From positions 5,568,501 through 5,632,500 of the forward strand of contig CP126199.1 of NCBI GenBank assembly GCA_030272155.1: a stretch of 64,000 nucleotides of DNA, in the 5' to 3' direction. The DNA comes from Tetradesmus obliquus (lineage: Eukaryota; Chlorophyta; Chlorophyceae; Sphaeropleales; Scenedesmaceae). The notes below the pieces were generated by a model. The model searched no databases. It was given only the letters and a program-made list of their open reading frames with translations, and was not told the origin of the DNA. A program made the translations under genes and the position numbers. Shown in pieces: positions 8,664-62,915 of this stretch (the first letter of the stretch is position 1; each line of letters opens with the position of its first letter).

Positions 8664-10232
8664 CGGCCATCAACAGCTCCACTCCCACCACCACAAACGC
8701 CGTTGCTGTGTTTATACCAACAACGTGGCAGCATCAGCAGCAGCATGAACGCCTGCACACTATGCTGTCATGCTGCACGCCCTTCAGCAACAGCACAAAC
8801 AAACACCCTGTTCTCTGCCGCAGCCTGTGGCCTGGCCATGTGCTCATCACTGCCCACTGTCGCTGCATGTCCTTTCCTACTGCAGCTGCGCCCGCCCCTA
8901 AGCAGCTGCCCCGCGTGCCCATCCCTGCACTGCCAGCTGGCCAGCAGCCCAACTTCATTGTCATCCTGACAGATGACCAGGGATGGGACGACATCGGCCT
9001 GCACAACCCTAAATATGTCAACACACCCAACATCGACAAGTGCGTGCAGATGATGGCAGCTGCAGCAACAGCAGCAGCAGGGGGCAACAGCAAGGACTGC
9101 AGTGGTCAGCTGCTGCAACAGCGAAGGCAGCCTCCAACACTGCCCACGCAGCAGCAGCAGCAGCAGCAGCGCTGGAGCCACGCAGCATAATCACAATTGC
9201 TGGCCTGCACTCTGTCATCTGCCAAGGTGGCTGCTGCTGCTGCTGTCGCAGGTTCATCCGGGGCGGCACGCTGTTTGACAACTTCTACGTGACGCCGCAG
9301 TGCGCGCAGACGCGCGCGGAGCTGCTGACCGGGCGCAAGTACGCACGCACCGGCACCATGCTGGTGCACGGAGGTGGGCACAGCAGCAGCAGCAGCAGCA
9401 GCAGTAGCAGCAGCAACAGACGATGCTGGTGATGATGATGACGCGATGCTGCAGATGCTGAGCAATGGCTTACCATGTGCCCCATGTGCTGCCACAGGCA
9501 CCATGCATCACCTCACATGCCCTGTGCGGCTTGCACTGCCCTCGCTGCAGGCTGAAACTTCATCAGCGCTGCATTCACAATGATTCTTAACATATCATGT
9601 GTCACACTGCTTGGCAAGTGTTCTTAGCAGCATCATGTGTGTCCTCACATGCACTTTTGCTGCAGGCTACGACTTCATATCATGTGTCGCACGTGTTTTA
9701 ACGAGCACCAAGTATGATCTCACATGCGCTTTTGCTACAGGCTATGACTTCATCAACAGCGATGAGGCCACGGCAACAGCAGGCGCAGTGCTGTCACAAG
9801 CACCATGTGTCACATTGGCTTCCACAGATACCGTGCATGACCTCACATGCCCTGCACGGCTTGCACTGCCTCCCTTGCATGCAACTGCAGGCTATGACTT
9901 CATCAACAGTGAAGAGGCCACAGCAGGCGCAGTGATGTCGGCAGCAGGCTACCGCACCGCGCAGTACGGCAAGTGGCACAACTGTGACGTGCTGGGCTAC
10001 GAGCCATGGAATGTGGGCTTTGACCAGGGGGCCTGCCTGGGCCTGGCCGCCACGTCAGCACCTGACGCTAGCAGGCTGATGCGGTGAGCTGAAGCCAGCA
10101 GCAGCAGCAGCAGCAGCGGTCCTGACAAGCTTGGGTAGCCTGCCAAAACAGCGCTATGCGTCAGCAAGCCGATGCCGTGCTACGACCTCAAAGCAGCAGG
10201 AGCATGAGCAGGCTATATCACTTCGTGTTACT

Positions 10233-23400: not shown

Positions 23401-24506
23401 CCCCCCTCGGGCCCCTGGGCAGTGGTGCTGAAGGGAGGGAGCCCAGGAGCATTGAGGAGCATGCCGTGATGAGCAGCTGCCGCACCGGCAGCATTGCCTT
23501 GCGCGTTTCCTGCTGGTTGCCCTGGCTATGCTGATGCTCCTCATCCTGCAGCCGCCTCATCCTGCTGCTGCTGCCGCCTCATCCTGCTGATGCTGCTGCC
23601 AGAGCCTGGAGGAGCGGCTGAGCATGACGCAGGATGGCCTGGGGGAGAAGGCGCTGGTGCTGGGCGAGGTCACGCACCTCACGGAGGGCCTGCGCGGCAC
23701 GGCGGCTGAGGGCCGCGCCACGGGCGCGCAGCTGGCGGCTGCTGCGAATGCGTACCAGGGCAAGCTGCGCTCTGTGACGCGGCGCATGATGGCCACCATC
23801 AGCGAGCTCAGCCTGTACCAGGTGCGCGTGAATAGACGATATCTTACAGTAAGGTACAGCGCGTGTGCATGTATGTGGGCTGAGCAGGTTGAAGTGGGCT
23901 TGATGGCCACCCTCATTGTTGACGCGGCGCATGATGGCCACCATCAGCGAGCTCAGCCTGTACCAGGTGCGCGTGAATAGACGATTACAGAGAGTAAGGT
24001 AAGTGCGTGTGCGTGTATGTGGGCTGAGCTCGCTGAAGTGGGCAGGATGGCCACGCTCAACTTGAGGATTCGTAAACATGGCCAATGTGACGAAGCGTAT
24101 GAGGCCCCATCAGCGAGCTCAGCCTGCACCAGGTGCGAGTGCGTGGAGTATGCGCAAGCTGTGGCCGATGCGGCGGGAGTTGATGGCAGAACTGACAGTG
24201 GCAGGGGCTGGGCTGCTATCGCCGCTAGCGCAGTTGATGCCCTCTTATACGCGCAGCTACCCGAAGCCGGCAGCCGGCAGTACGACACATGTGCTCCGTG
24301 CTGCTGCTGCTGCTGCTGCTGTGCAGGCCACGGCGCTGAATCTGCACGCCAGCAAGGTGCAGTTGCAGCAGCTGCTGGCGACGGCGCAGCAGCGGCTGGA
24401 GGCGGGGCAGCCACCCACTGAGGAGGCTGAGATGGAGTGGGCGGCGCTGGCCAGGCAGCAGGCCACACTGGATGACCTGGCGCAGCAGCGCGAGGAGGTG
24501 AGACGC

Positions 24507-28591: not shown

Positions 28592-29063
28592 AAATTTACA
28601 ACATGCCATACATGGCCACTAGGACAGTCAACTTTGAATGACAGTAGTACGAAACGGTAAAGCAGGCATACACATTCCCCCATTACATGCAATTTACACT
28701 ACTGCCACTCCTGCTTCTTGCGAGGAAAACTTCACCTTCAATCTGAGCTGCGGTGTCAACCAAGTGGCGTCACTGACAAGGTGTCACTACCCAGGCTACC
28801 AAGGACTACAAGAGGATGGAAGACTGTCAGTGCCGTTGCCCCCGAAGGGCATCGTGGCTCTTCGGGACGGCGCTGACCAGGTGTTGTTATGGTTGCAGGT
28901 AATACTAGACGACGTAGGAGCAGAAGCAGGAGCTGCACATGCTAATCTGAGGTTCAGCAGCCACGGTGGCCTTTCGGGGGACCACTCCTTGCCATGTGAG
29001 TGCGCATTATGTTGCATGATGCTGATGCTTGTAATGAATGCAATTCGGCAACTTTCCTTATAT
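28592..29063 (+). repeat. Triplicated unknown segment, copy 1 (472 bp)
   Basis: First of three ungapped direct copies. It matches 30683-31154 over 472 bp with two substitutions and 31368-31718 over its last ~351 bp. All three keep the same open frame, beginning at ATG 28638 in copies 1 and 2, with SCEENFTFNLSCGV and CHYPGYQGLQEDGRLSVP, but I do not recognise the peptide. Splice-like CAG/GTAATA and CATGTGAGT sites lie inside, so the unit could contain exons. Confidence 0.9.
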
Positions 29064-30682
29064 GGTACAAAGCGCTACACCTGTAAGTTTTCTGGTGGGC
29101 GCCCCGCAGCTTCGCAGTCCCTGCTGTGGCCTGAGGCTGTTTGTGGGGCAGTTTCTGTATGTGTGTTCCGAAGCCGTTACCGGTACTTGTCATTCGACAC
29201 GTAGCACGTATCCGTGACCGCGCAGTAGCACAGGCCTCCAGCAGCCCACCTCGGTGTCGGACTATTGCAGCGACTTCCCTTCAGGTAACATCAACAGCAG
29301 CTCGAAACAGATACTTTCAGTGACAGACACAGCAATGAGGTGCCTCCTGGGTCATACACACATGCACTTCCCCACATAGCTTCACCTCGCCTCGGCTTTG
29401 CTGCGACGTTATTTTAATTCGTTCGATCCTTACACCTTCATTTTACGGGTGCACATTATCCACAGCCTTGGCCAGCTTTATAGTCCCAACCCCAGAAGGC
29501 AGCTACCATCACCACAGCAGCAGCTGCAAGTACTACCCAGCGTATCACAGCAACGTTTTGGCGGCAGTTTCATGCACGATACTACAGTCACACATTAATA
29601 CAGTACGCTCAGCGTGGCTGGGCTGTCATCCAGGGTGTACAGCATCAGATACAGCAGCAGCTGTCTGCCAGCCCAAACAGGTTACAGCATGCACTTTCCG
29701 CTGTCAGCTCCAGCAGCAGCAGACAAACCACATGTCTGCCACACAGACAGCAGCGCACCTTGCTATCAGCATCACGCAGCAGTTAGCAGTTAGTGGCATG
29801 GGGACTGGATGTTGGGCCACCCATTGACATCTACAGTGACTAGAGCAGCCGGAGCACCTACATCGGCTGCCACACAGTCAGTATGCGGGCTTTCCAGAAC
29901 AACAGCATCTGCCTGCTATATGCAGTGGCGGCAGCAGCAGCAACAGCAACAACAACAGCAACAGCAGCGACAGCAGCGGCGATGTTGTTTGTGGTGGATT
30001 ATGTTTTGATGTTGTGTTATCGTGGTATGCGTCTGTTCTGGGGGAGGGTGACGGGCAGGTTGGGCGTGTGGTGTGGCCTGCTCTGAGAGGAGCAAACACC
30101 GGAAAGTGGGGCGTTCGAAGGTACACGTTGCTGGGCGATGCTTTTTTCATGAATGTTTTGTGCACACATACACAGCCTACATGTCGTCGCAGCATCGGGT
30201 TTGGGAGGAAGGGTTTGGAGACTAGCAGTGTTGGTGAAAACCAACACTGAGTGGTTCTGTGCAGTTTTTTGTTTTTTTTTTTGTTGGGGGGGGGGGGGGG
30301 GGGTTACGTGGATTTTGCTGTCTGGTGTACCTGGCACACCTGTTGGTGTAGCAGGTACTACGATTTTTGTAGTGCGTGAAAGAAATCCTGCAAGATGGTG
30401 CAGATACCAGGCGGCCCAGAGCAGCACAGGCTGCCCATACAATGTACGCGATATTTATTTCACACCTACACGTTACACCTGACTTTTTGCATGTACTGAC
30501 GCACTCATGAACTGGGAGTTACTGTTATATAATAAGGAACTAACACATGCCTATACTGTCAAGGGAAGAGTAGGTGCTCATACACCAAGGAGGTATCCTC
30601 AATGCATATAACACATCCCATACGATCACTCGCACGTGACGATGGGGAGCGCTGAGCGCCCGTCGTCTGATAAAGGACGACA
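29064..30682. other. Spacer between segment copies 1 and 2
   Basis: No gene recognised. The spacer contains an imperfect CAG/CAA run near 29930-29975 and a poly-T followed by poly-G run near 30265-30303. Confidence 0.5.
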
Positions 30683-31154
30683 AAATTTACAACATGCCAT
30701 ACATGGCCACTAGGACAGTCAACTTTGAATGACAGTAGTACGAAACGGTAAAGCAGGCATACACATTCCCCCATTACATGCAATTTACACTACTGCCACT
30801 CCTGCTTCTTGCGAGGAAAACTTCACCTTCAATCTGAGCTGCGGTGTCAACCAAGTGGCGTCACTGACAAGGTGTCACTACCCAGGCTACCAAGGACTAC
30901 AAGAGGATGGAAGACTGTCAGTGCCGTTGCCCCCGAAGGGCATCTTGGCTCTTCGGGACGGCGCTGACCAGGTGTTGTTATGGTTGCAGGTAATACTAGA
31001 CGACGTAGGAGCAGAAGCAGGAGCTGCACATGCTAATCTGAGGTTCAGCAGCCACGGTGGCCTTTCGGGGGACCACTTCTTGCCATGTGAGTGCGCATTA
31101 TGTTGCATGATGCTGATGCTTGTAATGAATGCAATTCGGCAACTTTCCTTATAT
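30683..31154 (+). repeat. Triplicated unknown segment, copy 2 (472 bp)
   Basis: Identical to copy 1 except for two bases. Both are in the shared frame and both change an amino acid (Val to Leu and Ser to Phe). Confidence 0.9.
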
Positions 31155-31367
31155 AGCAACCATCCTCACCAGCATCACCGTCATCATCATGCTGATCATC
31201 ACACATTGTGACAGCCCGAGCTCTGCATCAAGCCTTTTGACTGCACAGCTGAGATGTAACTGCCCTTGTCTGCTTCTTGTCGCTTGGGGTGATCAACAAA
31301 GCAGCCGATGTGCTGTACACAAGCGTTCCGCAGCTCGCAGTGCAGTGTGGGTTGGAGAGGGAGGGGG

Positions 31368-31718
31368 TGCTTCTTGCGAGGAAAACTTCACCTTCAATCT
31401 GAGCTACGGTGTCAACCAAGTGGCGTCACTGACAAGGTGTCACTACCCAGGCTACCAAGGACTACAAGAGGATGGAAGACTGTCAGTGCCGTTGCCCCCG
31501 AAGGGCATCGTGGCTCTTCGGGACGGCGCTGACCAGGTGTTGTTATGGTTGCAGGTAATACTAGACGACGTAGGAGCAGAAGCAGGAGCTGCACATGCTA
31601 ATCTGAGGTGCAGCAGCCACGGTGGCCTTTCGGGGGACCACTTCTTGCCATGTGAGTGCGCATTATGTTGCATGATGCTGATGCTTGTAATGAATGCAAT
31701 TCGGCAACTTTCCTTATA
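31368..31718 (+). repeat. Triplicated unknown segment, copy 3 (351 bp, 5' truncated)
   Basis: Lacks the first ~120 bp of copies 1 and 2. It shares the Phe-type change with copy 2 and adds two private substitutions (Cys to Tyr, Phe to Cys). Confidence 0.9.
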
Positions 31719-32945
31719 GGGGGTACAGGGGTTTCAACTCCCGTACCACCTGAGCATGCGATGAATGATTTCGACTACGATGTTCGTCGACATTTTGCAG
31801 CACAAAGCGTCCCTGTGTTGGCCTGCATGCCGACCAGCTGCTTGTCACTATCACTGCGAATTTCGATACCCTCCGAGATCAGCGTATTCCCTGCGAATAC
31901 GCAGCTGCATCAAAATCAATTACGAGTACTCATCAGTGCGTGTGCACGGCTATAAGCCTGATCTCGTCACCGTCACAGCCTTTAAGGCTTTAAGTTAAAG
32001 CACACAGGAACCAGGGGTTACACAGCCGTGCTGCTCATACTCATGCTCGACACGGTGTCATGCGTGGATTGATGCATCAGAACCGATCTAAAGTTTAGTT
32101 CAGCAGCGACGCGAGGCTCACGGCCGAGCACCTGCACAGTATGGCGCAGCTAGCAGCAGCCAGCACATGAGGACAATGTGTGCTGCTGGCAAACAAAAAT
32201 AGAACGCTGCAGCTTCTGTTAAAACCACATACAGCGGCGCTGGGCCACGCATCTACAGCACGCGCAGCGTCAGTAGCCAACAGGTAGAGATCAGCAGGTC
32301 GCCGGATTCAGCTCGCAGCTAATGCATACTACGTAGACAAATAGTGCATCTAGCATGAGGCAGCTGGTGTGGTGCAGGCCAACCCACGCGAACCTGTCCA
32401 CTGCTCGTGTGCTGCACGCTTGCCGTGTTGATTGCTGTGTGTATGTTGCTTTGCCAGTCTTGTGCTTTCAACGGACCATGCGTATCAGGCGCCGTTTGTT
32501 TCTTGGCCAGCACGCAGTTCTGAAGGAGTTTCATGCCTGGCAGGCGTTGGATGCAGACGCAGCGGCTGCGGCCCCTTCATCACAAAAAAAGTCCTGCGCA
32601 TGCACAAATCATGGCAGAGCTGCCGCTCTGGAGGCAGCGCCTAGCCAGATGCACGCCTGCACCAAATCTCCTGCAAGCATAATCCTTCCCACCAGCGCTG
32701 AATTCGTGCAACGTAACAAATTAATCGTGATGTCTTTGTTGCCCTCTGACTCGTGCAGGCGGCAGAGCACTTGCTGGGGGTGCCAGGCAGGACAATCCAG
32801 CACCAGCTCCAGTGCACCAACCCCTTGCCTGGGCACACCAGCTGTGGTGCTGCACCAAACATCACAGCATCTGTGCAACGCACACTGCTGTGACAGCTTC
32901 CAGGTGGCAGCAACCTAGAGTGCTAGAGCGCCTGCAGCAGGCACA
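31719..32945. other. Upstream region of the SBP gene, exons uncertain
   Basis: May hold 5' exons or the 5' UTR of the SBP gene. One possible exon lies at 32760-32902, between CAG acceptor and CAG/GTGGCA donor-like sites. It could not be joined in frame with confidence. Confidence 0.35.
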
Positions 32946-34847
32946 ATGCTGCCATGTGGGTTCCCAGCCCAGTACCAACAGCAGCAGCAGCAGCAGCACT
33001 TAGGCGTGGCACGTGCCTGCAGCAGCCAGCAGGAGAGCAGTGCAGCGCAGCTGGCAGCAAGAGGTGCACCTGACAACTGCAGCATGCTGTATGGCCAAAT
33101 GCAGCAGAGCCAGCAGCAGCTGCCGCACGAGTCAGCAGGCTGCATGCACGGCCACACGGAAGCCAGCGCAGCAACAGCAGCGATGCAGCCAGCTGGCAGC
33201 AGCAGCATGCGCGCATACGCCGCATCCTCAGGGGGCTTTGCAGGAGCCGCAGCAGCAGATGTGCGCGCCGCAACTGCTGTGGAAGCTGTAGCACCAGGCA
33301 GCACTGCCTGGGCAGCAGCCACTGAGCTCATCAAGCTTCAGGGCCAGGAGCCAACCATCCCACTAGTTACACTTGTGGCTGCACGGCTGCTGGCGCAGCA
33401 GCGGCAGCAGCAGGACGGCACGCTGGACCTGCTCGGCGGCAGCAGCAGCGGGCCAGCCGGCGTGTTTGGCGGCGGCGGCCGGCTGCTGCTGGGCGGTGCA
33501 GCAGCAGCAGCAGCAGGCGGCGGCCGCACTGCAGGCGGAACTATCACGAGGTTCTGCAAGCGCGGCAGTGTGTTCAATGCTAAGCCTGCTGCGCAGCGCG
33601 GCGTGCTTGGCAGCGCAGGACGGCCGTGGGATGCCGCTGCTGCTGCTGCTGAGGAGGCGCGGGCAGCTCAGCAGCAGCAGCAGGGCCGCATGAAGGGCCG
33701 CACCACATGCCAGGTGGCTGGCTGCCTGATGGATCTGCCGTCTGGCAAAGATACATACAACGGGCGCTACAGGGTGTGCGCGCAACACATGATGGTGAGC
33801 TTGGATGATTGGGGTGCGACTCGGGTTACTAAGTGGGCCACGCCAAAGGCCAAACTATCATTCCCGGTGCCCTGGCTGGCACAAGCTGCTGGCATGATTA
33901 GGCGACGACGCAACGTTTGTTCTGTGGGTGCTGACATCTGCATGTTCTGCTGCTGGATCAGGCTGGCATTTGGAGCCGCAGCAAATGCAAGTACAGTAGG
34001 GGGCAGTGGATGGAGGAGCAGTGGCAAGCGCTGTGACTCAAATCTGTGTAGGGTTGACTGGCGTTGCATGGCTCAGCATCAGCTGTGGTGTAACCAGCAT
34101 ATCAACCGCATGCCCTGCTCATTCAGCTCTAAGGTGTGCCTGCCCCTGCTTCTCTTTTTCGTGCCTGCAGGACCCTGCCGTGATGCTGTACGCGGACGCG
34201 CCGCAGCAACTGTTCCGCTTCTGCAACCAGTGCTTCAAGTTTGAGCCACTGCAGGCCTTCGACGGCCTCAAGCGGTAGGTGGGAGGGGGGGGGGGGCAGA
34301 AAGATCAGCTTGCAGCCAACCTGATGCAACAAGCACCTGATAATCTGTCTTGCTCGGGGAAACAACTGTCGCTTGCATGCATGTGTGCTGTGTGTGGCCT
34401 GCGACGGCCTCAAGCGGTGAGGCCACATCAGCAGCAGCAGCTTGCAGCAGAACAACAGCGTGCGTGCCGTGCTTGTTGACGTGCATTGCATGTGTGCATG
34501 TATTTGGCGGTGTGAGTGACACAACTCATGTATTTGGCGGTGTGAGTGACACAACGGATGTATTTGGCGGTGTGAGTGACGCAACGCATGTATTTGGCGG
34601 TGTGAGTGACACAACGGATGTATTTGGCGGTGTGAGTGACACAACGCATGTATGAGCCTGAGGATGCATGGGAGCAATGCAGGTGGCAAGGGGCTGCTGC
34701 AGACTGGTTTTGGGTGTTGTGCTGCCCCCATTCTGCAAGAAGCTGCCGCACTCCTTGCGGTTGCAGCCGCTGCAGCATATTGTCACTACATAACCCGCTC
34801 TCTGCCGGGGTCACCTGATGGGTGTGTTGTTGGTGGTTCTGCTTCGC

Positions 34848-39905: not shown

Positions 39906-40730
39906 TGCGGGATTGGCCAGTTATGTTGTCCTGTGCAGGATGAGTCATGCGCTGATGCTAGTGCTACTTGCATATCGCACCACACTGTCAGCTGTTGCTG
40001 TCATTTGTTGGGATGGGGCAAGGCACACAGTTTGGTGCCTTGGCCCAGATTTTGGGAGCAGCAGCAGCAGCAGCAGCAGCAGTGACAGGAATTGGCAGCA
40101 CTTGGTGCTCGTTTGCCAGAGCTCGAAGGCAAAATTTGTAGCATTGCTGCTTCAGCAGTATGTTGTGGCGTCAGTGCCAGATGGCCGGCATGCCTCTCAC
40201 ACATGCTTACGCTTGTGCAGGGTGCTTTGCTAATGTTGGACGCAGTCATATGCTTTATCTATCTGCTATACTTATCTGCCGCTGATGGGTTGATTCTTCT
40301 GTCAGTATGGCCTCTGTTACCTCTGGGTGTTTGTTTGTTGCCTCAAGGGCGTATGGCTGGCAGGGCTGTCCCATCAAGGCAGGGCCTGACAGGGCCCTGC
40401 TCTAGCACCCGCGTACCGAGTAAATAAGGGTGCTGCGCGCTGCTGACGGCAATACTCTCAGGCATGCAAAGGTATGGACTATATGGCCTGCTGCTGCTGG
40501 CATCACGGGCAAATGCCAGCAGCAGCATGTTTGGGTACCGCGTTCTCTGGTGTGGCTTTTCTGTGGTTGGCGGCTGTCTGCGCCGAGCAAACACGTGGCT
40601 TTGAAAATGGGCTCAGCAGGAGTTGGAAGGGCAGATAGAGTGGCGGCAGGCGTGCTGTGTTGGCTGGACCTCCGCGGGATACCGCTGGTGGCGCTGCATG
40701 CAGGCTGGCAGCGCTGCCGTGCAACATGTG
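38499..40730. other. SBP 3' region and gene-poor stretch
   Basis: No coding exon recognised. Much of the plus strand is rich in T and G. Short CAG runs occur at 39880-39904 and 40060-40082. Confidence 0.4.
39177..39181 (+). terminator. Possible TGTAA polyadenylation signal of the SBP gene
   Basis: Algal-type TGTAA pentamer about 680 bases after the SBP stop codon. Weak, motif-only assignment. Confidence 0.25.
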
Positions 40731-41260
40731 CACCGCACTGCATGAGGTGTACCACTCTGCATGATGTGCACGTGTGTTGTATAGCACTGCTTGATGTGCA
40801 ACATGTGCACCGCACTGCATGATGTCCACCGCACCGTACTGCATGATGTGCACGAGTGTTGTACAGCACTGCTTGATGTGCAACATGTGCACCGCACTGC
40901 ATGATGTCCACCGCACCGTACTGCATGATGTGCACGAGTGTTGTACAGCACTGCTTGATGTGCAACATGTGCACCGCACTGCATGATGTCCACCGCACCG
41001 TACTGCATGATGTGCACGAGTGTTGTACAGCACTGCTTGATGTGCAACATGTGCACCGCACTGCATGATGTCCACCGCACCGTACTGCATGATGTGCACG
41101 AGTGTTGTACAGCACTGCTTGATGTGCAACATGTGCACCGCACTGCATGATGTCCACCGCACCGTACTGCATGATGTGCACGAGTGTTGTACAGCACTGC
41201 TTGATGTGCAACATGTGCACTGCACTGCATGATGTCCACCGCACCGCATGCCGTGCACTT
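40731..41260. repeat. 82-bp satellite array, about six copies
   Basis: The word GCATGATGTGCACGAGTGTT recurs at 40841, 40923, 41005, 41087 and 41169, exactly 82 bp apart, with near-identical intervening sequence. Diverged copies flank it on both sides (to about 41370). The unit is itself built from shorter GCACTGCATGATGT-like words. Because 82 is not a multiple of three, all three minus-strand frames stay open by cycling. The long frames here are an artefact. Confidence 0.95.
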
Positions 41261-41369
41261 GTGCTGTACAGCACTGCATGATGTGGCCCGCACCGCATGA
41301 CGTGCACCTCACTGGATGATGGGCACGCGTGCTGTACAGCACTGCATGATGTGCACTGCGCTGCATGAT

Positions 41370-52698: not shown

Positions 52699-55600
52699 GT
52701 ATCCGGAGCTGCTGTGCCATTGCTGCTGGGTTTGCTGCTGGGAATGGTACTGCTGCTGCTGCTAGTGCCATCATCAGCCCAGCTGCTGCTGCTGCTGCTG
52801 CTGCTAATCACCCGCTGCTGACCAGCAGCACCCAATGCAGCTTGCCGAGCATAGCTGCTGCTACTGCTACTGCTGCTGCTGCCGGCAGCACCCGGCGACA
52901 CTGGCCGCGGGTTCAGCACCGCCCTTACTGCCCTGGCTGCCAGGCGGCTCGCCAGCTTTGAGCTAATATTAAGTGGGATGGACAGCGCCTCTCGCCGGGC
53001 CTCAGGGCTCAGCAGCTGAACCTCGGACAGCAGCCACTGCAGCACCGCCACGGTCTGCTGCAGCTGCTGCTGCTGCTGCTGCTGCTGTTGACTGCCGGCG
53101 CCTGCCTGCAGTGCCTGCTGCTGCTGCATGTGCTGCTGCTGCTGCTTGCTAGCTGTGCTGAATGCAGCCAGCTGTGTAGCTAGCCGGCTCAGGCCATCCA
53201 CCTGAGCTTGATCTCCTGCATCAGCAAGCTTTGGCACAGCCATCATAGCCTCAAGCAGCGCAGCCCGGCCATCCGCCGCACTGCTGCTGCTGCTGCTGCT
53301 GCTGGCTTCGGCCGGCTGCCCGCTCAGCCATGGCGGCAGCAGCGCCGCCGGCAGCGGCAGCGGCAGCGCAGCCACCACTCCCTCCAGCTGCTGGCTTGCT
53401 GCTGCCAGGCTGTCGTCCACTGCCAGCCGCCACGCAGCATCCAGGCCCTTGGCCAGCTCGTCTTCAAGGATGCCCCTGCATTGCAGCAGCAAGGGTAAGA
53501 CAGAGATGCCTGAGCAATAAGAAGAAGTTGGGAGACACTGTATGAGAGCACGCCACCAGCAGCCTCCAGCTCATTTCCACCCACCTGATGTAACGCCCCT
53601 CAGGGCTCAGCACCAGCGCCAGCGGGCCGCCCGCTGCCGCTGCCTCACTGCCGCGCCCGCTCACACGCTGCTGCTGCTGCTGCTGCTGCTGCCCAGTGAT
53701 GCCACTCAGGCCAGGCAGGAAGCTGCCTAGCAGCTGCCCTGCAGGGCCAGCCACTGCACTGGCAGGACCCCACACGCTGCCAAACAACCCACCAGACCCC
53801 GCTGCTGCTGCTGCTGCTGCTGCTGGTACTGGCTCTAGGCTTGTCCCGGTGCTACTGCTGCTGTCTCTGGCAGCAGCAGCAGCAGTAGCAGCAGCGCGCG
53901 AGCTGACTGCTGCCTTGGCGGCCTGCTCCAGCAGCGACTCCAGCCGGTCAAACTGGAAATGACCGGACTTGTCATATAACAGGTTGTTGAGCGTCGCGTG
54001 CAGCTCCGGGGAGTCCTGCGTCAGCAGCCGCCGGCTGACCCAGGGGTAGGCCGCACCCAGCACCTGGCGCAACAGCAGCAGCAGCAGCGGATTCAGTTTG
54101 CTACACAAGCCAACGTGATGGACCTTTTCAGACACATGTGCAACCGCCTTGGTGGGCCCCATTCAAAGCCAAGCGCCCTCAGGGGCATCCACCCATCTTG
54201 TAGCCCGGGTCTCTGGCCTGCGTGATGCCCTCCAGCACAGCTGCAAATGACACAAACACATACATAGGCACTGATGCATCACAGCCGTACATACACCTTG
54301 TAGGCCTAGATCACTGACCAGCGCGATGCCCTCCAGCACTGTTGCAACTCTTTAAAAAGTGAACCACACAACGCCACACAGTCAAACACACTGCCCACCT
54401 TGTACCCCGGGTCGCTGGCCAGCGCGATGCCCTCCAGCACGCTCAGGCTGCGCACCAGCAGCGTGTAGTAGGGCGGCAGCCGGAAGCTGAAGCGGTACAT
54501 GGTGCGGCCCAGGTCGGCTGAGAGCGTGCCGAAGCTGAGGTTGCTCACGCCGCCTGCCAGGGCCGCCTGGAACACGCCTGCAGTAGGCAGCAGCAGCAGC
54601 AGCAGCAGACAGATCTGAACAAGTCAGCGATAAGGTGGCAAGGCTCTGTTTGCTCACGTCGCCTGCAAGGGCTGCCTGAAACACGCCTGCAGGACAGCAG
54701 CAAGGTAACAGTGTGTGTACACACAGCATGTAAAAGCTGAAGCAGTACATGGTGCGGCCCAGGTCGGCTGAGAGCGTGCCGAAGCTGAGGTTGCTCAAGC
54801 CGCCAGCCAGGGCGGCCTGGAACACGCCTGCAGCAGCAGCAGCAGCGGCACATAATCATTAGGTCGGCTGAGAGCGTGCCAAAGCTCAAGTTGCTCACGC
54901 CGCCTGCCAGGGCCGCCTGGAACACGCCTGCAGTAAGTAGCAGCAGCAGCAGCATAACATAATCATTAGGTCGGCTGAGAGCGTGCCGAAGCTGAGGTTG
55001 CTCACGCCGCCTGCAAGGGCTGCTTTGAACACGCCTGCAGCAGCAGCAGCAGCAGCAAGTTAGATTCAAGAACACACAGTAAATCCACAATCAAACAGCA
55101 CTGGAATCGCACGCAACGGCCAGCAAACCACAAGGCCGCGCCCTTGGGCAGCATGTCGCAGGTGGTGTGCGTCTCCTGACGGTGCAGCAACGGCTTTCAG
55201 ACCCGGTGCGTCATAATTCAAAGTCAAGGTCATGCTGCTGCCTTTGCACTCACCTGTGAGTGCGGGCAGCACGTCGCTGGTGTCTGTGCCTGACGGCAGC
55301 AGCCCCAGCGTGACAAAACCAACAGTACCAACAGTATGAAAACCCTCTGAGAAAAGAATACAAGGCGCACCTGTAAGCGCGGGCAGCACGTCGCTGGTGT
55401 CTGTGCCTGGCGGCAGCAGCCCCAGCGTGAAAACCAGCGCTATGTAGACAATGGTTTATTCAAGTACATGTGCATTTCAACCCACCTGTGAGCGCGGGCA
55501 GCACGTCGCTGGTGTCTGTGCCTGGCGGCAGCAGCCCCAGCGTGACAAAACCAACAGTACCAACAGTATGAAAACCCTCTGAGAAAAGAATACAAGGCGC

Positions 55601-56368
55601 ACCTGTGAGCGCGGGCAGCACGTCGCTGGTGTCTGTGCCTGGCGGCAGCAGCCCCAGCGTACAAATCAGCGCTATGTAGACAATGGTTTATTCAAGTACA
55701 TGTGCATTTCAACCCACCTGTGAGCGCGGGCAGCACGTCGCTGGTGTCTGTGCCTGGCGGCAGCAGCCCCAGCGTGACAAAGTCCTCGGCCAGTCGCTCG
55801 TACTCGCGGTTGACCAGGTGCAGCGTGGCGCGGATGAGGCCTTGCCGCACCGCTGGCTCCACCTCGCCCATCATGCCTGCAGGGAGGACGCGGTGCACAG
55901 CAGGGGACACATGAGCACACAGCAGCACTCAGCACAGCGTTGGATGATCCCCTGGCGCACAGCAGGCTCCACCCCGCTTATCGTGCCTGCGGAGTCAGAG
56001 GCAGCACACAGCAATAAACAGCAGTACACAGCACAGTGTTAGATGAGCTGCTGATCAGCAGGCAATTCCTGTCGCGTAAGCAGTTCAAGCGAGTTGGTAG
56101 AAGGTGTGCGTGGTCCATGCGGCAGCAGCGCAAGGCAGAAGGCAGCCCGCAGGTGATCGCTGCAGGCTGGTGTGACGCAGGCCGGCGCGGCTGCAGTTTG
56201 CCCTGTTTGGCCGCACCCAGCTGCCGCTGATGCAGCTCATGAGTGCAGGCGCAGCACCAAACATGCCTCTCTGCCTCACGCAAAACGGCCGCTGCTCACC
56301 AAAGTCCAGGTAGGCGAGGCGGCCGTCTTTGGTCTTGAGCAGGTTCCCGGGGTGAGGGTCTGGCAACG

Positions 56369-56401
<33 letters not shown>

Positions 56402-57059
56402 GCGGCGGCAGCCTGGTGTTATCACAAGGCTGCACACCATGACGGGATTACATCGCAGCGGTGGACGATTGTTGAAGGCACGCGGTACAGCCGATCACAC
56501 CACACAGAGCATGCCCTGCAAGGATAAAGGATGTGGGATCCGTTGATAAGGTTTTAAGCCAGAGTCCCAGCTCATCCGCGCAGTAGAAGCCCTCCTCCAG
56601 CATCTGCTCCAGCAAACAACACACCACACACACCCTGATGGTCTCGCCAAACGCACCAACATCCAAACATCAACACTGTTTGCTCACCCGCGTGGTAGAA
56701 GCCCTCCTCCAGCATCTGCTCCAGCCAACACAAATAAATCTGATGCTCCCGCCCCACAACATCAACCCGTGATGGTCTCGGCCAACACACCAATATCCAA
56801 ATATCAACAGCATGTGCTCGCTCAAAAATACAGCAGCAATCCAGCATCTGCTCCAGCAGACACCAAATGAGCCATGATGGTCTGAGGCAGTAAAAAGCAA
56901 AATGTATGTATCAAGTATATAGATATGATTGAGATTATTCACCCGCGTGGTAGAAGCCCTCCTCCAGCATCTGCTCCAGGCTGCAGCGCACACCAATCTC
57001 AACCAGCCGAAGGTCCTCAGCCACACGAGCAGCATCCGCTGCAGCCAACACCCTGCTGC

Positions 57060-57095
<36 letters not shown>

Positions 57096-60000
57096 CAACC
57101 CCAGCCAAGCCTGCGGCCCCAGGGGCCTGGCTGCTGGCGCTGCGCAGGCGCTCGCCCTCGATCCACTGCATGACCAGCACGCGCGGCGTGGTCAGCTGGC
57201 TGTACATGGTGGGGACAACCACCTCGGGCATGAAGGCAAAGAGCTGCGCAAAGCGCGTCGCGTTGGCGGCCTCCCTGCAGTGCGGCAGGAACAGCAGCAG
57301 CAGCGAAGACATGGTCAGCTGGCTGTACATGGCAGGCACCACGACCTCGGGCATGAAGGCAAAGAGCTGCGCAAAGCGCGTCGCGTTGGCGGCCTCCCTG
57401 CATGACGGCAGCAACAGCAGCAGCAGCAGCAGCGGCGGCAGCGAAGAAGTGGTCAGCTGGCTGTACATGGTGGTGCGAACACGACCTCGGGCATGAAGGC
57501 AAACAGCTGCGCAAAGCGCGTCGCGTTGGCGGCCTCCCTGCATGACGGCAGCAACAGCAGCAGCAGCAGCGGCGGCAGCGAGGAAGTGGTCAGCTGGCTG
57601 TACATGGTGGTGCGAACACGACCTCGGGCATGAAGGCAAAGAGCTGCGCAAAGCGCGTCGCATTGGCGGCCTCCCTGCAATACGGCAGCAACAGCAGCAG
57701 CAGCGGCGGCAGCAGCAGCAGCAGCAGCGAGGAAGTGATCAGCACACACCTGGCCAGACCACCCTTGCAGCAAATGCTGCAACAACTGCTGCAACAACCG
57801 GTCACCTGCCATGGTTGCAAGAACAGGGATCGTGTTGGGCTCCCTGCAGCTGTCGCATATAAACCGGCACATGGTGCTTGCAGCCACACAGCGCCATAGC
57901 GTTGTATCCCTGTACAACGCTTGTACAACACGTGGTGCTGCAAACAGACAAATAAATCCAACCCCGCACCTCCTGTAGTCCAGCTCCTTGAACGGTCTGA
58001 CAGCCCACTCACAGACACATTTGCTCCCTATATCAGCTGTACAACACAACATAGATTTGACAAAGGTGCACCTCCTGTGATCCTGCTTTTTGAACAGGCT
58101 GGCAGCCCACGCATCAACGAGCGCCGGCAGGTCGGTGTTGAGCTTCAGCTGGCGCCGCGCCACGCCCGCCAGGTGCCGCAGGATCCGTGGTTTGTACCGC
58201 ACGAACACACAAGCGACAAGCAACACAGCCCACCTCCTTGAACGCCCTGGCAGCCCAAATCATCAACACGTTCGGTCCCTTCATCGATCGTACAACCATA
58301 CATCGATTTAAACAAAGCCGTACCTCCTGTAATCCAGCTCCTTGAACAGGCTGGCCGCCCACTCGTCAACCAGCGCCGGCAGGTCTGTGTTGAACTTGAG
58401 TTGCTTGCGGGCCACGGCCGCCAGGTTGCGCAGGATGAACGTGTCGCGCCCAATGGCCTCCACCACGCCCGGGCGCTGCACCTGCACATGGGAATGGAAA
58501 CATCAGTTGCAGCAGCATCGACAGATGATATATGTCTATGGCCTAGCCTGCAGTAGCACTGGATGGCCTCCACCACGCCCGGGCGCTGCACCTGCACATG
58601 GTGGAAGCAGCAGCATCGGCAGCAGGCCATGTGCTGCTATATCTGTAGTAACGCCGCACCCACAGTAGCACTGAGTGGCCTCCACCACGCCAGGCGCTGC
58701 ACCTGCAAGGGTGATGTTGACAGCAACACACAGCATTGTAATGCATGCAGCGGCCACATACGAACAGGCTGTGGACAGCCTCCACTACGCCCAGGCGCTG
58801 CACCTGCACAAGGGAAAGGGGACATCAGTTGCAGCAGCATTCGAAGGTAATGCTGCAGCATATGATGTACCCTTTCCCTTGAAAAGGTAATGTCCCACTA
58901 CTATACATGTCTATAGCCTCGCCTGCAGTAGCACTGGATGGCCTCCACCACGCCCGGGCGCTGCACCTGCAAGGGTGATGTTGTGATGTTGACAACGATG
59001 CAATGCTCTAATGGCATGCAGCGGCAACATAATAACAAGCAGCATATGGCCTCCCACAGGACCCGGGGCGCCACTGCTGCAGATGGAAGCAGCAGCGGCA
59101 GCAGCAGCTCCATGTCAGTTTCCAGCTCTGTGTCAACGCCTGACCTGCAGCACAAACAAGCACTGTGCCGCCTCCACTACCACACCAAAACACCGCACCT
59201 ACATAAAGAGCAACAGTGGCAGCAGCATGCAAAGCAGCAGCTGGCGCCAGCTGCCTCAAGTCCAGTGCACCCACCTTGACTGCTACTTCCGCTCCATTGC
59301 TGGCCAGGGTGCCCTTGTAGACCTGGCCCAGCTACCACCAGCAGCAAGACTTCAGTTGTCAAAGCCACCAACCACGCAACACCTTCAACCGCACCATGAC
59401 TGCCACCTCAGCCACGTCGCTGGTCAGTATGCCGTTGTAGACCTGGCCCAGGCTGCCACCCTGCAGCACCTGCCCCTAAGCTCCCCTGCCTGATAAACAC
59501 GCCCCCAACGCACCTTGACTGCCACCTCAGCCCCGTTGCTGGCCAGGGTGCCCTTGTAGACCTGGCCCAGCCAGCCACCCTGCAGCAGCAGATCCTCCAC
59601 TGCCAGCACCACCAACCATGTGGCCAGCCACCCACCTTGACTGCCACTTCTGCCCCGTTGCTGGCCAGGGTGCCTTTGTAGACCTGGCCGAGGCTGCCCT
59701 GCAGCACCTGCCACCTAAGCTCCCCTGCCTTGTCAACACACCCCCAACGCACCTTGACTGGCACCCCTGCTCCATAATTAGCAAGTCTCCCCTTTCAGAC
59801 CTGGCCCAGCCAGCCACCATGCAGCAGCAAGATATGTATCTGCCCCTCTCCCTCCCCAAAAACACACCCCTAGCGCACCTTGACCGCCACCACTGCCCCG
59901 TTGCTGGCCAGGCTGCCCTTGTAGACCTGGCCCAGGCAGCCACCCTGCAGCAGCAGCTCCTCCACTGCCAGCACCACCAACCATGTGGCCAGCCACCCAC

Positions 60001-60372
60001 CTTGACTGCTACTTCTGCCCGTTGCTGGCCAGGCTGCCCTTGTAGACCTGGCCCAGCCAGCCACCCTGCAGCAGCAGATCCTCCACTGCCAGCACCACCA
60101 ACCATGTGGCCAGCCACCCACCTTGACTGCTACTTCTGCCCCATTACTAGCTAGTGTGTCCTTGTAGACCTGGCCCAGGCTGCCCTGCAGCACCTGCCCC
60201 CTAAGCTGGCCTGCCTAACAAACACGCCCCCAGCGCACCTTGACCGCCACTTCTGCCCCATTACTAGCCAGGGTCCCCTTGTAGACCTGGCCCAGGCTGG
60301 CTGCCGCCACGGGGGAGGCGCTGAGGGAGGAGAACACCGCACCCCACGGCAGACCCAGCTCAGCCTCAATGA

Positions 60373-60412
<40 letters not shown>

Positions 60413-62915
60413 GGTGTGTGGAGCGGGAAAGCGTCTGTAGCAATGGCCCCGCAGCAGAAGCAACATCAGAGTACCTGCAGATGCAAGCACATGTGCACCT
60501 ACACACGTGTGTTTGTGCAGGGTGATAGGCACCAACTGGCATCCTGTGCGCCCAGCAAGCATGCACATAACAAGGTTACGATGTAACAATGTAACAAGCC
60601 CCACATGAAGTGCCTCCGCATCAGAAGAGGGTGGGATCCTGTCCTGGTCCTGCAGCAGCTCCAGCTCGGCCAGGTAGGCAGGGCAGATGTACAACAACAA
60701 AAGTGTAAGATGCAAAATGTAGCATGTGACAATGCAACAAAGTAACAAGCGTGCAGCGCCTCTGCATCAGAAGAGGGTGGGATCCCGTACTGCAGCAGCT
60801 CCAGCTTGGCCAGACGCCCAGGAACATGTACAAATACATAACTGTACAGTGTGTCAACACAGTGAAATGAGTTAAACATGTGACAATAACATGTGACAAT
60901 AACAATGTAACAAGCCCCACCTGCAGCGCATCTGCATCAGAGAAGGGTGGGATCCTGTCCTGCAGCAGCTCCAGCTCGGCCAGGTAGGCAGGGGGCAGCA
61001 CGTCAGGCCGCGACGACAGCGCCTGCCCAATCTTGACAAAGGCAGGACCCAGGTCAACCAGCACCTGAGGCAGTACACATGCAGTACGTGGCAGTACAAG
61101 CAGCCAAATCAGTACTTCACGCACACATGTCGGGCTGCTGGCAGCAGAGGGCAGGGCCCAGGTCAACCAGCAGCTGCGGCATACGACACAGGGCGCTGCT
61201 AGCAGCTGCTGTCAGCGCTGTGACGCAGCGTATGCCACCCAGATGCACGCCGCTGTGCGGCTTCTGCTGCTGCTCTCCACACCGCCAGCATCATCATGTG
61301 TGTGTAAGCTGGCATTCTGCCAGCCTTGCATGCTAACGGGCAGCTGCTGCACCCGGCGGGCTGCCAAGCGCTGTCGGGTGCCTCTGCAGGGCCACACAGC
61401 TGGCGCGGCTGCTGGCAACCCCTCCCCCTCCCTGCCTCGCACCCCCTGCGCCCTGCTGCTGGCACCTCCCTCCCCTTCCCTGCCTGGCCCCATCACCACC
61501 CGCAAGCACTACCCTGGGCACCGCACTGCCACGCCGCCTTGCTTGATCTGCTGCTGGTGTTGCTGCTGCTTCTGCTGGTGGTGTTGCTGCTGCTGTTGCT
61601 GTGCACACACTCCCCTGGCCTCCAACCTTCAGCTCCAAAGCACGCACCTTGCGCATGTCTGCTGCCGCGCGCCGCTCATCCTTGTGCAGCTGCGAGCGCA
61701 GCCACCACCTGCAGCAGCAGCATGCGGCACATATGTTTGTTACAGCAGCACCACATGACACACGCATTGACAGCAGCAGCAGCAGCAGCAGCAGCAGCAC
61801 ACCTGGCCGTCGAGGTGAAGCTGAGCCCCCTGCGGCGCTAATGAGCAGCCAAGGCCCCACAACTGACGCTAGCGCTGCATCTCGTGCATTCACCACAACC
61901 TGAGTCGGCGCAAGCATGCAAGCATGCATAGATGGCCGCAGGACGTCCCGCAAAATGCATGCATGCGCAAGCAGCAGCAATCCAAGTCGTGTGTCCGTCT
62001 GCTGATGCCTGAAACACCACACTGTGCTCACAACTGCACCAAGCACACACAGCTAGTATTGAATCTGCGTCAACTGCTCTGCCCGTGAAAACATGGCCAT
62101 GCACTATAGCTGCTATTGCTTCTGCCGCAATCAAGCAGCGCTCTGCAGCAGCAGGGACATGAACACTGAAAAACCCCTGTGTGCTCACAACTGCTACTAA
62201 GCATGCACAGCTGCACCTGAGCCTGTGTCAACTGCTCTGCGCATGCACAGAAGCCATGCTGCTGCTCCTGCTGTTGCTACTGCTGCTGCCGCCAGTGAAC
62301 CCTAAAACAGCACAGCCTGCTGCCTCCGCCCGCCACCCACCAGCCGAACGCCACGCCGATTTCACACAGCCGAGCCACCACAGGCACAGGCCGCCGATTC
62401 CAGGTGTCAGCTGTGTCAGCAGCGCTGTACGCCACAGCAGCGGCAGACGCAGCAGCAGCAGCAGTCGGCGGAGGCCCCGGGCCCGCTGCTGCTGTCGCTG
62501 CTGCCGCAGCTGCGATTCTGTCAGCGCCGTTTGCGGCAGGGGGTGCTGCTGTGCTGCTGAATTGCTGGCGCGTGGCCTTAGCTTGCAGGACAACTGCAGA
62601 ACCCTCTCCTCTACTGTAAAAACGCGGCGTGCTTGCAGGAAACCGCCGTCGTACCGCAGGTGCTCCTGCAGCAGCCGAATACTTGAGGCTGCCAGCAAGC
62701 AGTGCATGCGGTGCAGCTGGTGTGGCATTTGCAGTGCACAGGGTGCGCCTGGTCAGCCTGGTGGTGCTGCGGCTGTGATGCCTTCGCTGCCGCTGGCCTG
62801 GCACAGGGGGCCGCTGCAGCTGCCGCGTGCTGATGCTGTTACAGGGGCGGGTCTGCATGTCGGCTGCTGCTGGTCGCATGGCAACTGTGCTACAGCACTG
62901 CGATGGCACCTGCAC
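52149..62915 (-). CDS. ABC1K: ABC1/UbiB-family atypical kinase (ABC1K/ADCK type), organelle-targeted
   Basis: Eleven exons on the minus strand, in transcript order: 62341-62915, 61648-61708, 60921-61064, 60239-60373, 58324-58481, 56943-57274, 56300-56359, 55718-55876, 54399-54577, 53585-54063 and 52149-53475. They encode 1202 aa, all phases consistent. Residues 1-150 are Arg/Ser/Ala-rich and look like an organelle transit peptide. Then come the YSAADTADTWNRRP..VVARLCEIG start of the ABC1 fold, the KxGQ motif (KIGQ, 223-226), the Ala-rich loop PVAAASLGQVY, VAVK with Lys305, HADPHPGNLL (467-476) and DFG (487-489). Residues 543-650 (SFRLPPYYTLLVRSLSVLEG, YPWVSRRLL) match the C-terminal part of plant chloroplast ABC1Ks. 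The family acts in prenylquinone metabolism: plastoglobule ABC1K1/K3 in plants, COQ8/ADCK3 in mitochondria. A Ser/Gln/Ala-rich tail of about 400 aa is unusual. Introns are filled with tandem copies of exon ends. Confidence 0.88.
54190..55045 (-). repeat. Exon-fragment arrays around ABC1K exon 9
   Basis: The start of exon 9 (VFQAALAGGVSNLSFGTLSADL) with its upstream CAG acceptor recurs at about 54655-54690, 54770-54832, 54863-54932 and 54968-55037, besides the true start at 54577. Downstream in the gene, the end of exon 9 (LEGIALASDPGYK) is echoed at about 54195-54240 and 54300-54345. Confidence 0.85.
55250..55780 (-). repeat. Five copies of the ABC1K exon 8 end
   Basis: The segment coding LGLLP(P/S)GTDTSDVLPALTG with its GTG donor appears about five times at roughly 120-bp spacing. 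The copy nearest 55718 is the in-use one. Several copies carry identical flanks, so recent unequal exchange is likely. Confidence 0.9.
56570..56975 (-). repeat. Copies of the ABC1K exon 6 end
   Basis: The words for LEQMLEEGFYHAG plus donor recur at about 56575-56605, 56690-56725 and, partly, 56835-56855, in addition to the exon end at 56943. The 56690 copy has a GTGAGC donor, stronger-looking than the GTGAAT of the modelled exon. Confidence 0.8.
57220..57690 (-). repeat. Four copies of the ABC1K exon 6 start
   Basis: The sequence for EAANATRFAQLFAFMPEVV with its upstream CAG acceptor is present at the true start (57274) and at about 57400, 57540 and 57680. Spacing is about 120-140 bp. Several copies continue into MYSQLTT. 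Confidence 0.9.
57960..58205 (-). pseudogene. Diverged copy of ABC1K exon 5
   Basis: A segment coding RILRHLAGVARRQLKLNTDL and ALVDAWAASLFKKQDHRR parallels exon 5 (FILRNLAAVARKQLKFNTDL, WAASLFKELDYRR) over about 40 residues. It lacks the VQRPGVVEAI start and an obvious acceptor. Shorter echoes of the exon end lie near 57965-58005 and 58215-58245. Confidence 0.7.
58555..58975 (-). repeat. Four further copies of the ABC1K exon 5 start
   Basis: The acceptor plus VQRPGVVEAI-coding block of exon 5 (true start 58481) recurs at about 58560-58602, 58677-58710, 58780-58810 and 58937-58970. More decayed echoes lie near 59050 and 59165. Confidence 0.85.
59270..60300 (-). repeat. Nine-copy 120-bp array of the ABC1K exon 4 end
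   Basis: The exon end coding LGQVYKGTLASNGAEVAVK and its donor begins (plus-strand coordinate of the donor side) at about 59273, 59393, 59513, 59633, 59753, 59877, 59998, 60118 and 60238. The last is the modelled exon. Most copies have a CTGCAG acceptor-like site about 63-66 bp upstream and GTCAAG before GTGCG or GTGGG. Each could therefore behave as a phase-0 mini-exon of 21-22 codons. The copy at 59998 has a one-base deletion, and the one at 59753 is badly decayed. Confidence 0.92.
60590..60900 (-). repeat. Copies of the ABC1K exon 3 end
   Basis: Two diverged copies of the AYLAELELLQDRIPPFSDADAL-coding end of exon 3 lie at about 60600-60680 and 60745-60820. A fragment of the exon start is echoed near 61150-61180. 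Confidence 0.8.

What the first reader, a model, noticed from the sequence alone, without database searches (positions are those of the whole stretch)
59270..60300. Nine tandem mini-exon cassettes of the kinase nucleotide-binding segment
The exon piece coding GQVYKG..EVAVK, which carries the nucleotide-binding loop end and Lys305 of ABC1K, is repeated nine times at almost exactly 120 bp. Most copies have an AG upstream and a GT downstream. The included piece is 63-66 nt in phase 0, so insertion or exchange would keep the frame. This could be a splice-variant generator or a row of decaying pseudo-exons. Intact frames in most copies argue for more than random decay; a one-base deletion in one copy argues against all being used.
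Basis: partly seen in the sequence, partly recalled or inferred. Interest (0 to 1): 0.85.

Follow-up and report, generated by a model that had tools for sequence, protein, structure and literature searches.

The report
Exon-edge copies filling algal introns
In this green alga's ABC1 kinase gene, the introns hold one to eight copies of the edges of their neighbouring exons, mostly 100-140 bases apart; the nine-copy row reported is the longest, and similar rows occur in other genes of the genome.

Summary
In detail: nine copies of a 57-nt exon piece (LGQVYKGTLASNGAEVAVK) at 117-126 bp spacing, 59268-60300, minus strand. It is one of many. All eight introns identified in this ABC1 atypical-kinase gene carry junction-spanning copies of an adjacent exon edge (11 junctions, about 33 copies; intron 1 has only one 32-nt match); 67% of intron length is repeat-covered. 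Direct repeats of this spacing occur in 28 of 54 sampled ABC1, AAA and kinesin gene blocks (256 direct, 8 inverted pairs; 2 and 3 after shuffling). E1 alone completes the exon; the other copies lack its first half and cannot simply replace it. A relative's sequence lacks the exon-5 copies, so arrays turn over. Best reading: recurrent tandem duplication across exon-intron junctions, hidden by splicing, reshuffled inside arrays. It is not pure decay: array-averaged exon-copy pN/pS is 0.28-0.31, below the 0.5 expected if copies drift from birth; E6, E7, E9 differ from E1 only synonymously, while E3, E5, E8 are broken or decayed. Whether any copy is spliced in is untested (no RNA). New variant of a known kind (internal tandem duplication, intron gain), unusual in scale.

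The parts
60239..60373 (-). Exon 3 of the ABC1 kinase gene (VIEAELG...EVAVK), complete; its last 57 nt (60239-60295) are copy E1
   Evidence: tblastn and exact placement; Pfam ABC1 match of the joined exons
60122..60178 (-). E2: copy with one residue change, TGCAG acceptor, GTGGGT donor, 63-nt in-phase cassette
60001..60056 (-). E3: copy with one-base deletion, out of phase (65 nt)
59879..59935 (-). E4: copy with two residue changes, in-phase 66-nt cassette
59753..59809 (-). E5: decayed copy with TGA, acceptor lost
59636..59692 (-). E6: copy with unchanged protein sequence, 63-nt in-phase cassette
59514..59570 (-). E7: copy with unchanged protein sequence, 66-nt in-phase cassette
59395..59451 (-). 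E8: decayed copy (6 nonsynonymous differences from E1), splice dinucleotides kept
59275..59331 (-). E9: copy with unchanged protein sequence, 7 synonymous differences from E1, TAG acceptor, 57 nt
58482..60238 (-). Intron 3 (1757 nt), 1536 nt covered by local direct repeats: eight donor-side exon-3 copies, then four acceptor-side exon-4 copies
58563..58971 (-). Four acceptor-side copies of the start of exon 4 (VQRPGVVEAI), AG kept in all four
60584..60813 (-). Two donor-side copies of the end of exon 2 (LAELELLQ..ALQ); donor GT kept in one (60584-60683), lost in the other (read by eye)
61150..61181 (-). One short (32-nt) acceptor-side match to the start of exon 2, the only copy in intron 1
57959..58184 (-). 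Two donor-side copies of the end of exon 4
57312..57705 (-). Three acceptor-side copies of the start of exon 5 (REAANATRF...), absent from the relative P0241
56572..56724 (-). Two donor-side copies of the end of exon 5 (LEQMLEEGFYHA), donor GT kept in one; a further 17-nt fragment at 56840-56856
55942..55990 (-). One acceptor-side copy of the start of exon 7
55239..55665 (-). Four donor-side copies of the end of exon 7 (TLGLLPPGTD..ALTG), with two alternating unrelated linkers
54635..55057 (-). Four acceptor-side copies of the start of exon 8 (GVFQAALAGG..SADL)
54192..54339 (-). Two donor-side copies of the end of exon 8 (VLEGIALASDPGYK), donor GT kept in one
53911..61704 (-). ABC1 atypical-kinase gene (nine exons identified from homology; 5' and 3' ends not defined)

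Best explanation
The row is an exon-edge array. Segments of about 100-140 bp that straddle an exon-intron junction (here the last 57 nt of exon 3, its donor and about 60 nt of intron) were duplicated in tandem again and again, so that copies of the exon edge now lie inside the intron. Such duplications are tolerated because the outermost, original junction still works: E1 is continuous with the rest of exon 3 and splicing from its donor removes all other copies with the intron. Later unequal exchange inside the conserved exon blocks changed copy number and mixed linkers. The same process left copies in every identified intron of this gene and in many sampled genes. Shown: the arrays, junctions, spacing, occurrence in other genes, decay of some copies, absence of one array in a relative. 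Inferred: the splicing outcome and the duplication and exchange process. Copies are a mixture: some look neutral or broken, others (E6, E7, E9 here) carry a purifying-selection signature, so some are probably spliced into part of the transcripts.
For: Nine units of 117-126 bp. All eight identified introns hold junction-spanning copies, at 11 junctions, two of them single copies; spacing mostly 99-140 bp. 67% of intron length is repeat-covered; 42 of 43 local direct matches overlap exon or exon-copy sequence. Splice dinucleotides are kept in 30 of 33 copies (17 of 20 donors, 13 of 13 acceptors; 32, one read by eye). Survey: direct repeats 60-300 bp apart in 9 of 14 ABC1, 14 of 18 AAA, 5 of 22 kinesin gene blocks; 29 of the fetched exon matches outside this gene have a nearby DNA copy of the exon piece itself; 256 direct and 8 inverted pairs against 2 and 3 after shuffling; spacing peaks at 100-140 and 200-260 in the ABC1 and AAA blocks. 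Mixed linkers around one exon block in the exon-3 and exon-7 arrays suggest exchange within the block. P0241, an unnamed relative, runs from the same intron-4 sequence into a single exon 5. Constraint: pN/pS 0.28-0.31, bootstrap 95% ranges within 0.22-0.41, 36 arrays, 90 copies.
Against: Simple tandem duplication would copy the linker with the exon piece, yet in the exon-7 array the first copy is identical to the exon over 58 nt while the linkers are unrelated; exchange is needed to explain it and was not demonstrated directly. A size near 120 bp has no explanation in this model. The pN/pS below 0.5 does not fit inert copies, and it is lowest, not highest, in the least diverged pairs (0.15 below 6% divergence, 0.31 above 14%), so 'young copies drift, old ones are kept' is not what the data show. 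Kinesin genes are much poorer in arrays (5 of 22). No RNA evidence shows which junctions are used.
Confidence: 0.62

Rival explanations
1. All extra copies are inert and decay neutrally from birth; the intact ones are merely young.
For: E3, E5, E8 are broken or decayed; some copies show more nonsynonymous than synonymous changes (L009 1:4, L028 2:5, L043 1:4 and 2:3, L050 1:4 and 2:4, L006 2:3; synonymous first). One array is absent in a relative.
Against: Even if the exon changes only at synonymous sites, exon-copy pN/pS should be at least 0.5 for copies that drift; observed 0.28-0.31, with none (no transition bias) or 0.04% of bootstraps reaching 0.5. The least diverged pairs have the lowest ratio (0.15), the opposite of 'young and neutral'. 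L041 upstream copy 17.7 synonymous to 4.3 nonsynonymous; L010 9:0; E6, E7, E9 7:0 each. Mismatch positions between repeats follow a three-base period beyond 2000 shuffles. The bound assumes one coding exon per haplotype and equal synonymous rates.
Confidence: 0.2
2. Splice-variant generator: copies are in-phase cassette exons that add 19-22 residues after VAVK, or swap in.
For: Six of eight extra copies have both an AG and a GT and a length divisible by three; protein sequence unchanged in three of eight.
Against: Copies lack the first 78 nt of exon 3, so a swap at the exon ends is impossible; insertion would double a core kinase strand (inferred). Other arrays in the gene do not offer native-frame cassettes, e.g. 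exon-7 copies have no AG next to them (read by eye). None of the five related proteins I read in full (P0001, P0009, P0017, P0018, P0077) shows a doubled segment there; all are other species.
Confidence: 0.08
3. Seamless exchange: where the duplicated exon piece contains AG|GT, the spliceosome can leave at AG|GT of one copy and enter at AG|GT of another without changing the protein, so any copy can serve and all stay under weak selection.
For: Arrays whose exon piece holds an internal AGGT have lower pN/pS (0.17 against 0.33; one-sided label permutation 0.021; 9 and 31 array entries); in pairs that share the AGGT the side that would be used has 0.10, the other 0.28. L030 (GAG|GTGGGC) has seven copies with 13 synonymous and 0 nonsynonymous differences in total. 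[quoted passage not shown] PMC3443670).
Against: In the nine-copy row the internal site is CAG|GTCTAC, unlike the GTG and GTA donors of this gene. The junction-proximal part is better kept also in arrays without AGGT (0.29 against 0.39). Several constrained arrays have no internal AGGT in the aligned piece (L010, L039, L053). The used/unused contrast was not tested for significance, and the hypothesis was formed on these data.
Confidence: 0.1
4. Assembly artefact or collapsed haplotypes.
For: None found; tandem arrays are where assemblers err.
Against: The nine exon pieces differ pairwise by about 7-32% and linkers differ; the pattern recurs in many gene blocks on a 17-contig, 104.66 Mb assembly.
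Confidence: 0.02

Closest known systems
[quoted passage not shown] PMC4974935, passages seen)
   Different: One duplication in one gene there, with a new intron reported; here up to eight extra copies, on donor and acceptor sides, in every identified intron of a gene and in many sampled genes; no transcript evidence.
AGGT model of intron gain by exonic tandem duplication (Rogers 1989; Hellsten 2011; fission-yeast cases), as described in passages of PMC4974935 and PMC3443670
   Same: Tandem copies of coding sequence with splice sites end up as intron and the protein stays the same.
   Different: There the duplicated segment is exonic; here the unit includes intron and the existing junction, and an existing intron grows rather than a new one arising.
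Internal gene duplication across eukaryotes (Gao and Lynch 2009; cited in PMC4974935 and PMC3443670, paper itself not held)
   Same: Duplication of pieces inside genes, also including introns.
   Different: Multi-copy exon-edge arrays and the narrow 100-140 bp spacing are not in the passages I saw.
Mutually exclusive tandem exons (recalled; e.g. Dscam-type clusters)
   Same: Row of similar exon sequences with own splice sites.
   Different: Copies here are exon fragments that cannot replace the exon; several are broken.
Introner elements (mentioned in a passage of PMC3443670)
   Same: Intron sequence multiplying in a green alga.
   Different: Introners are one family spread over many genes (recalled and passage); here each array comes from its own exon (the array DNA finds only itself in the genome).

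Membership tests
ABC1 atypical kinase (UbiB/ADCK/COQ8), PF03109 | Match to the ABC1 domain over its length | tested here: met
   244 bits, profile 2-242 of 244; solved relatives 7cy2, 5yjz, COQ8A/B; named plant relatives of At1g71810
Intron growth by junction-spanning tandem duplication | Head-to-tail copies containing exon edge plus junction plus intron | tested here: met
   in several copies homology ends 3-5 nt past the junction because the linkers are unrelated
Intron growth by junction-spanning tandem duplication | Original junction still spliced, copies removed with the intron | not testable with these tools
   No transcripts of this species were available
Intron growth by junction-spanning tandem duplication | Array absent in a relative (derived state or loss) | tested here: met
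   Exon-5 array only: protein P0241 shows intron-4 sequence followed by one exon; not tested for the nine-copy row
Mutually exclusive exon cluster | Each copy is a full alternative exon of the same length and phase | tested here: not met
   57-nt fragments of a 135-nt exon
Rogers AGGT intron gain | Duplicated segment purely exonic with AGGT giving both splice sites | tested here: not met
   Units hold about 60 nt of intron-like linker and the existing donor
Introner / transposable element | Same element at many loci | tested here: not met
   1051 bp of the array match one place only in 104.66 Mb (the tool skips very common words)

The most novel reading that the evidence does not exclude
Exon-edge arrays are a working, genome-wide feature of this alga: redundant exon edges that the spliceosome can use interchangeably (by seamless AG|GT joining or in-phase cassettes), kept by selection in part of the genes, with tandem duplication at junctions as the main engine of intron growth. 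It would be a class of intron built from its own flanking exons.
Probability: 0.2. Interest if true: 0.88.

Novelty: new variant of a known kind. Interest (0 to 1): 0.64.

Why it matters
Tandem duplication is called the only mechanism of intron gain shown in vivo (a passage of PMC3443670). Here one genome shows dozens of duplications of differing divergence at exon-intron junctions, so duplication rate, size preference, decay and splice-site use could be measured directly. It may also offer a reason for long introns in this group: Tetradesmus obliquus, possibly a relative (reported 108 Mb and 57% GC; here 104.66 Mb, and 58.4% GC in the window), has mean introns of 462 bp against 230-302 bp in the four other algae of the same table (PMC5966456 passages); that link is my inference. 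Automatic gene models for such genomes are likely to be wrong at these exons.

Tried and rejected
Searching for a second, diverged gene copy (hybrid or homeolog) that could explain synonymous-only differences: the array DNA finds only itself. Gene conversion as a cause of low pN/pS: reasoned through, not simulated; with one coding exon per haplotype it cannot push exon-copy pN/pS below 0.5. Correlates of having arrays, uncorrected tests: GC3 no difference (p 0.82), GC p 0.08, CAG density p 0.05, longest exon match shorter in array blocks (207 against 295.5 nt, p 0.009). The idea that young copies drift and only old ones are kept: not borne out by the divergence bins (pN/pS 0.15, 0.24, 0.24, 0.31 from least to most diverged; pooled over copies, not array-averaged); I withdrew it and lowered the pure-decay rival from 0.22 to 0.20. 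Random 10-kb sampling of the genome was not possible. Literature: the listings of ten searches (three of them empty or nearly so, showing 20 of 3,060) showed no report of exon-edge arrays in green algae; only open-licence PMC papers were searched, and I saw listings, and passages of three papers (PMC4974935, PMC5966456, PMC3443670).

Caveats on counts. Loci fetched: 30 of 50 ABC1 matches, 30 of 30 AAA matches (19 of 178 AAA candidates were scored), 30 of 135 kinesin matches. The 28 of 54 blocks are blocks with local direct repeats, not each shown to be exon copies; exon copies as such are those, where two of 29 (L035, L068) are doubtful. In one search minus-strand loci were translated on the wrong strand, so its 30 of 60 (same strand) and 2 of 60 (opposite strand) are similarity counts only; strands were set right. 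One search includes redundant and paralogous pairs (80 rows); one search dropped L011, L026, L029, L058, L060 as mirror images, L018 and L024 as replaced by the window exons, pairs under 75% identity, under 30 nt or beyond 1400 bp (1500 bp for the window exons), and did not use exons 1, 6 and 9. The splice-site retention test (30 of 33, tail 0.04) assumes 88% neutral identity and is weak. Permutation p 0.021 is one of several contrasts looked at. In one search intron 1 scored 0 exon-homologous bases at the stricter cut-off, so its single copy rests on the 32-nt match.

Full report
Observation. The nine copies exist as described. On the gene (minus) strand each unit is a 57-nt piece coding LGQVYKGTLASNGAEVAVK or a variant, followed by a donor-like GTG and a linker of about 60 nt; spacing is 117-126 bp. 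The joined exons are an ABC1 atypical kinase (PF03109, 244 bits), with named plant relatives of At1g71810 among the best hits. Exon 3 is 135 nt (60373-60239); copy E1 is its last 57 nt, and E2-E9 follow inside intron 3. The copies do not contain the first 78 nt of the exon, so none can replace it.

Anatomy of the row. All eight extra copies keep GT at the donor position. Seven of eight have an AG within 12 nt upstream; six of eight would be in-phase cassettes of 57, 63 or 66 nt; E3 is 65 nt because of the one-base deletion and E5 has lost the AG and carries TGA. Linkers come in two main unrelated types that do not follow the exon-piece types: E1, E4, E5, E7 have one, E2, E3, E6 the other (read from the alignment). 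The exon pieces split into two groups by linked third-position variants (E1, E2, E5 against the rest). So pieces and linkers have been reshuffled, most simply by unequal exchange inside the exon block; this is inferred.

The same thing in the whole gene. Using each exon with flanks as query, all eight introns between the nine identified exons hold at least one copy of an adjacent exon edge: donor side of exons 2, 3, 4, 5, 7, 8 and acceptor side of exons 2, 4, 5, 7, 8, eleven junctions and about 33 copies, mostly 99-140 bp apart (some first copies at 170 or about two units). Two junctions have a single copy; that of intron 1 is a 32-nt match and does not reach the stricter cut-off. The junction dinucleotide is kept in 30 of 33 copies: 32 judged from the alignments (two lost), one by eye (lost). 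Of 6414 intron bases 4318 (67%) are covered by local direct repeats and 1923 (30%) match exon sequence; of 43 local direct matches one does not touch exon or exon-copy sequence. Intron 3 holds eight copies of the end of exon 3 followed by four copies of the start of exon 4.

The same thing in the genome. The genome is one assembly of 104,662,953 bases in 17 contigs. I took loci of 1.5 kb either side of exon matches to three families: ABC1 (30 of 50 matches fetched), AAA (30 of 30) and kinesin (30 of 135), which merge into 54 gene blocks. Direct repeats 60-300 bp apart occur in 9 of 14 ABC1, 14 of 18 AAA and 5 of 22 kinesin blocks; ABC1 plus AAA against kinesin, Fisher p 0.0007. Outside this gene 29 exon matches have a nearby DNA copy of the exon piece itself (two of them doubtful). 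In all blocks 256 direct and 8 inverted pairs are found, and 2 and 3 after shuffling in 12-nt chunks. Nearest spacings in the ABC1 and AAA blocks cluster at 100-140 with a second group at 200-260 bp. Mismatches between repeats follow a three-base period: mean share of the commonest phase 0.543 against 0.501 (sd 0.008), none of 2000 shuffles as high. In the window outside this gene, repeats at 9472-9939, 17202-17477 and 23773-24141 lie in coding-looking sequence; frames beside the first score as sulfatase, below Pfam's cut-off.

Turnover. P0241, a 194-residue prediction from an unnamed 869-base public contig (ENA), aligns to intron 4 of the window running into the first copy (57910-57617, 75.5% identity) and to the functional exon 5 (57309-56941, 87%), in one continuous frame with a single REAANATRF exon where the window has four. 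So the three exon-5 copies were gained in this lineage or lost in the other. This is one array and a protein prediction, not DNA.

Selection. Within the row pooled pN/pS over the 36 pairs is 0.22 (pairs are not independent). E1, E6, E7, E9 code the same peptide and differ by 4-7 synonymous changes; E7 to E8 is 1 synonymous to 6 nonsynonymous. A copy that drifts while the real exon is held should show exon-copy pN/pS of at least 0.5. Averaged over 36 arrays (90 copies) the value is 0.28 without and 0.31 with a transition bias estimated from four-fold sites; bootstrap ranges 0.22-0.37 and 0.24-0.41, with none and 0.04% of bootstraps reaching 0.5. Six of 90 copies have an in-frame stop in the aligned codons. 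Individual copies differ widely (from 9:0 to 1:4 synonymous to nonsynonymous). Pooled by divergence the ratio is 0.15, 0.24, 0.24 and 0.31 from the least to the most diverged pairs, so the constraint is not confined to old copies. The bound assumes one coding exon per haplotype and the same synonymous rate in exon and copy; very deep allelic divergence could weaken it.

How a kept copy might be used. Exchange at exon ends is impossible for donor-side copies. Two routes remain: in-phase insertion, or seamless splicing between AG|GT sites inside the repeated piece, as in the AGGT model of intron gain (passages of PMC4974935 and PMC3443670). Arrays whose exon piece contains AGGT have lower pN/pS (0.17 against 0.33, one-sided permutation 0.021), but the junction-proximal side is better kept in arrays without AGGT too, and in the nine-copy row the internal site is unlike the gene's donors. 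I treat this as a lead.

What it is. The closest known event is the potato RdRp case, a single tandem duplication across an intron-exon boundary (PMC4974935, passages seen). Here such duplications form arrays on both sides of introns, gene-wide and in many sampled genes, with a narrow size range. The listings of ten searches of the open-licence library showed no report of this.

Open points. The 100-140 bp size, the gene-class difference and the identical exon pieces next to unrelated linkers (exon 7) are not explained by simple tandem duplication alone.

Noticed in passing
window 9472-9939 (+): Repeats at 85-330 bp coding GYDFINSEEATAGAV-like pieces in a gene whose neighbouring frames match sulfatase weakly (below Pfam cut-off); looks like exon-edge copies.
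   Followed up: partly
window 17202-17477 and 23773-24141 (+): Repeats at 138 and 145 bp in coding-looking sequence, probably exon-edge arrays of two more genes; frames tried there had no Pfam match.
   Followed up: partly
54 gene blocks, L002-L091: Kinesin genes are poor in such repeats (5 of 22) while ABC1 and AAA genes are rich (23 of 32); coding GC3 does not differ; cause unknown.
   Followed up: partly
window 28592-31721: Copies of 350-470 bp, about 99% identical, 0.6-2.7 kb apart, with an open frame starting MTVVRNGKAGIHIPPLHAIYTT and no Pfam match.
   Followed up: no
window 40719-41285 and 34496-34653: Minisatellites of 82 bp (7 copies, 95% matches) and 30 bp (5.3 copies, 93%), sizes outside the exon-edge range.
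   Followed up: no
window 58802-58888: 40-nt inverted repeat (83% complementary) with a 7-nt loop inside intron 3, overlapping an exon-4 copy (I1).
   Followed up: no
L008/L011 (G000 C13:3772208-3772639): A 54-residue ABC1 exon piece present twice in full, both open, 13 synonymous to 5 nonsynonymous differences; a candidate for true alternative exons.
   Followed up: partly
window 32919-34241 (+): 441-residue open frame with a weak SBP-domain match, below Pfam cut-off.
   Followed up: no
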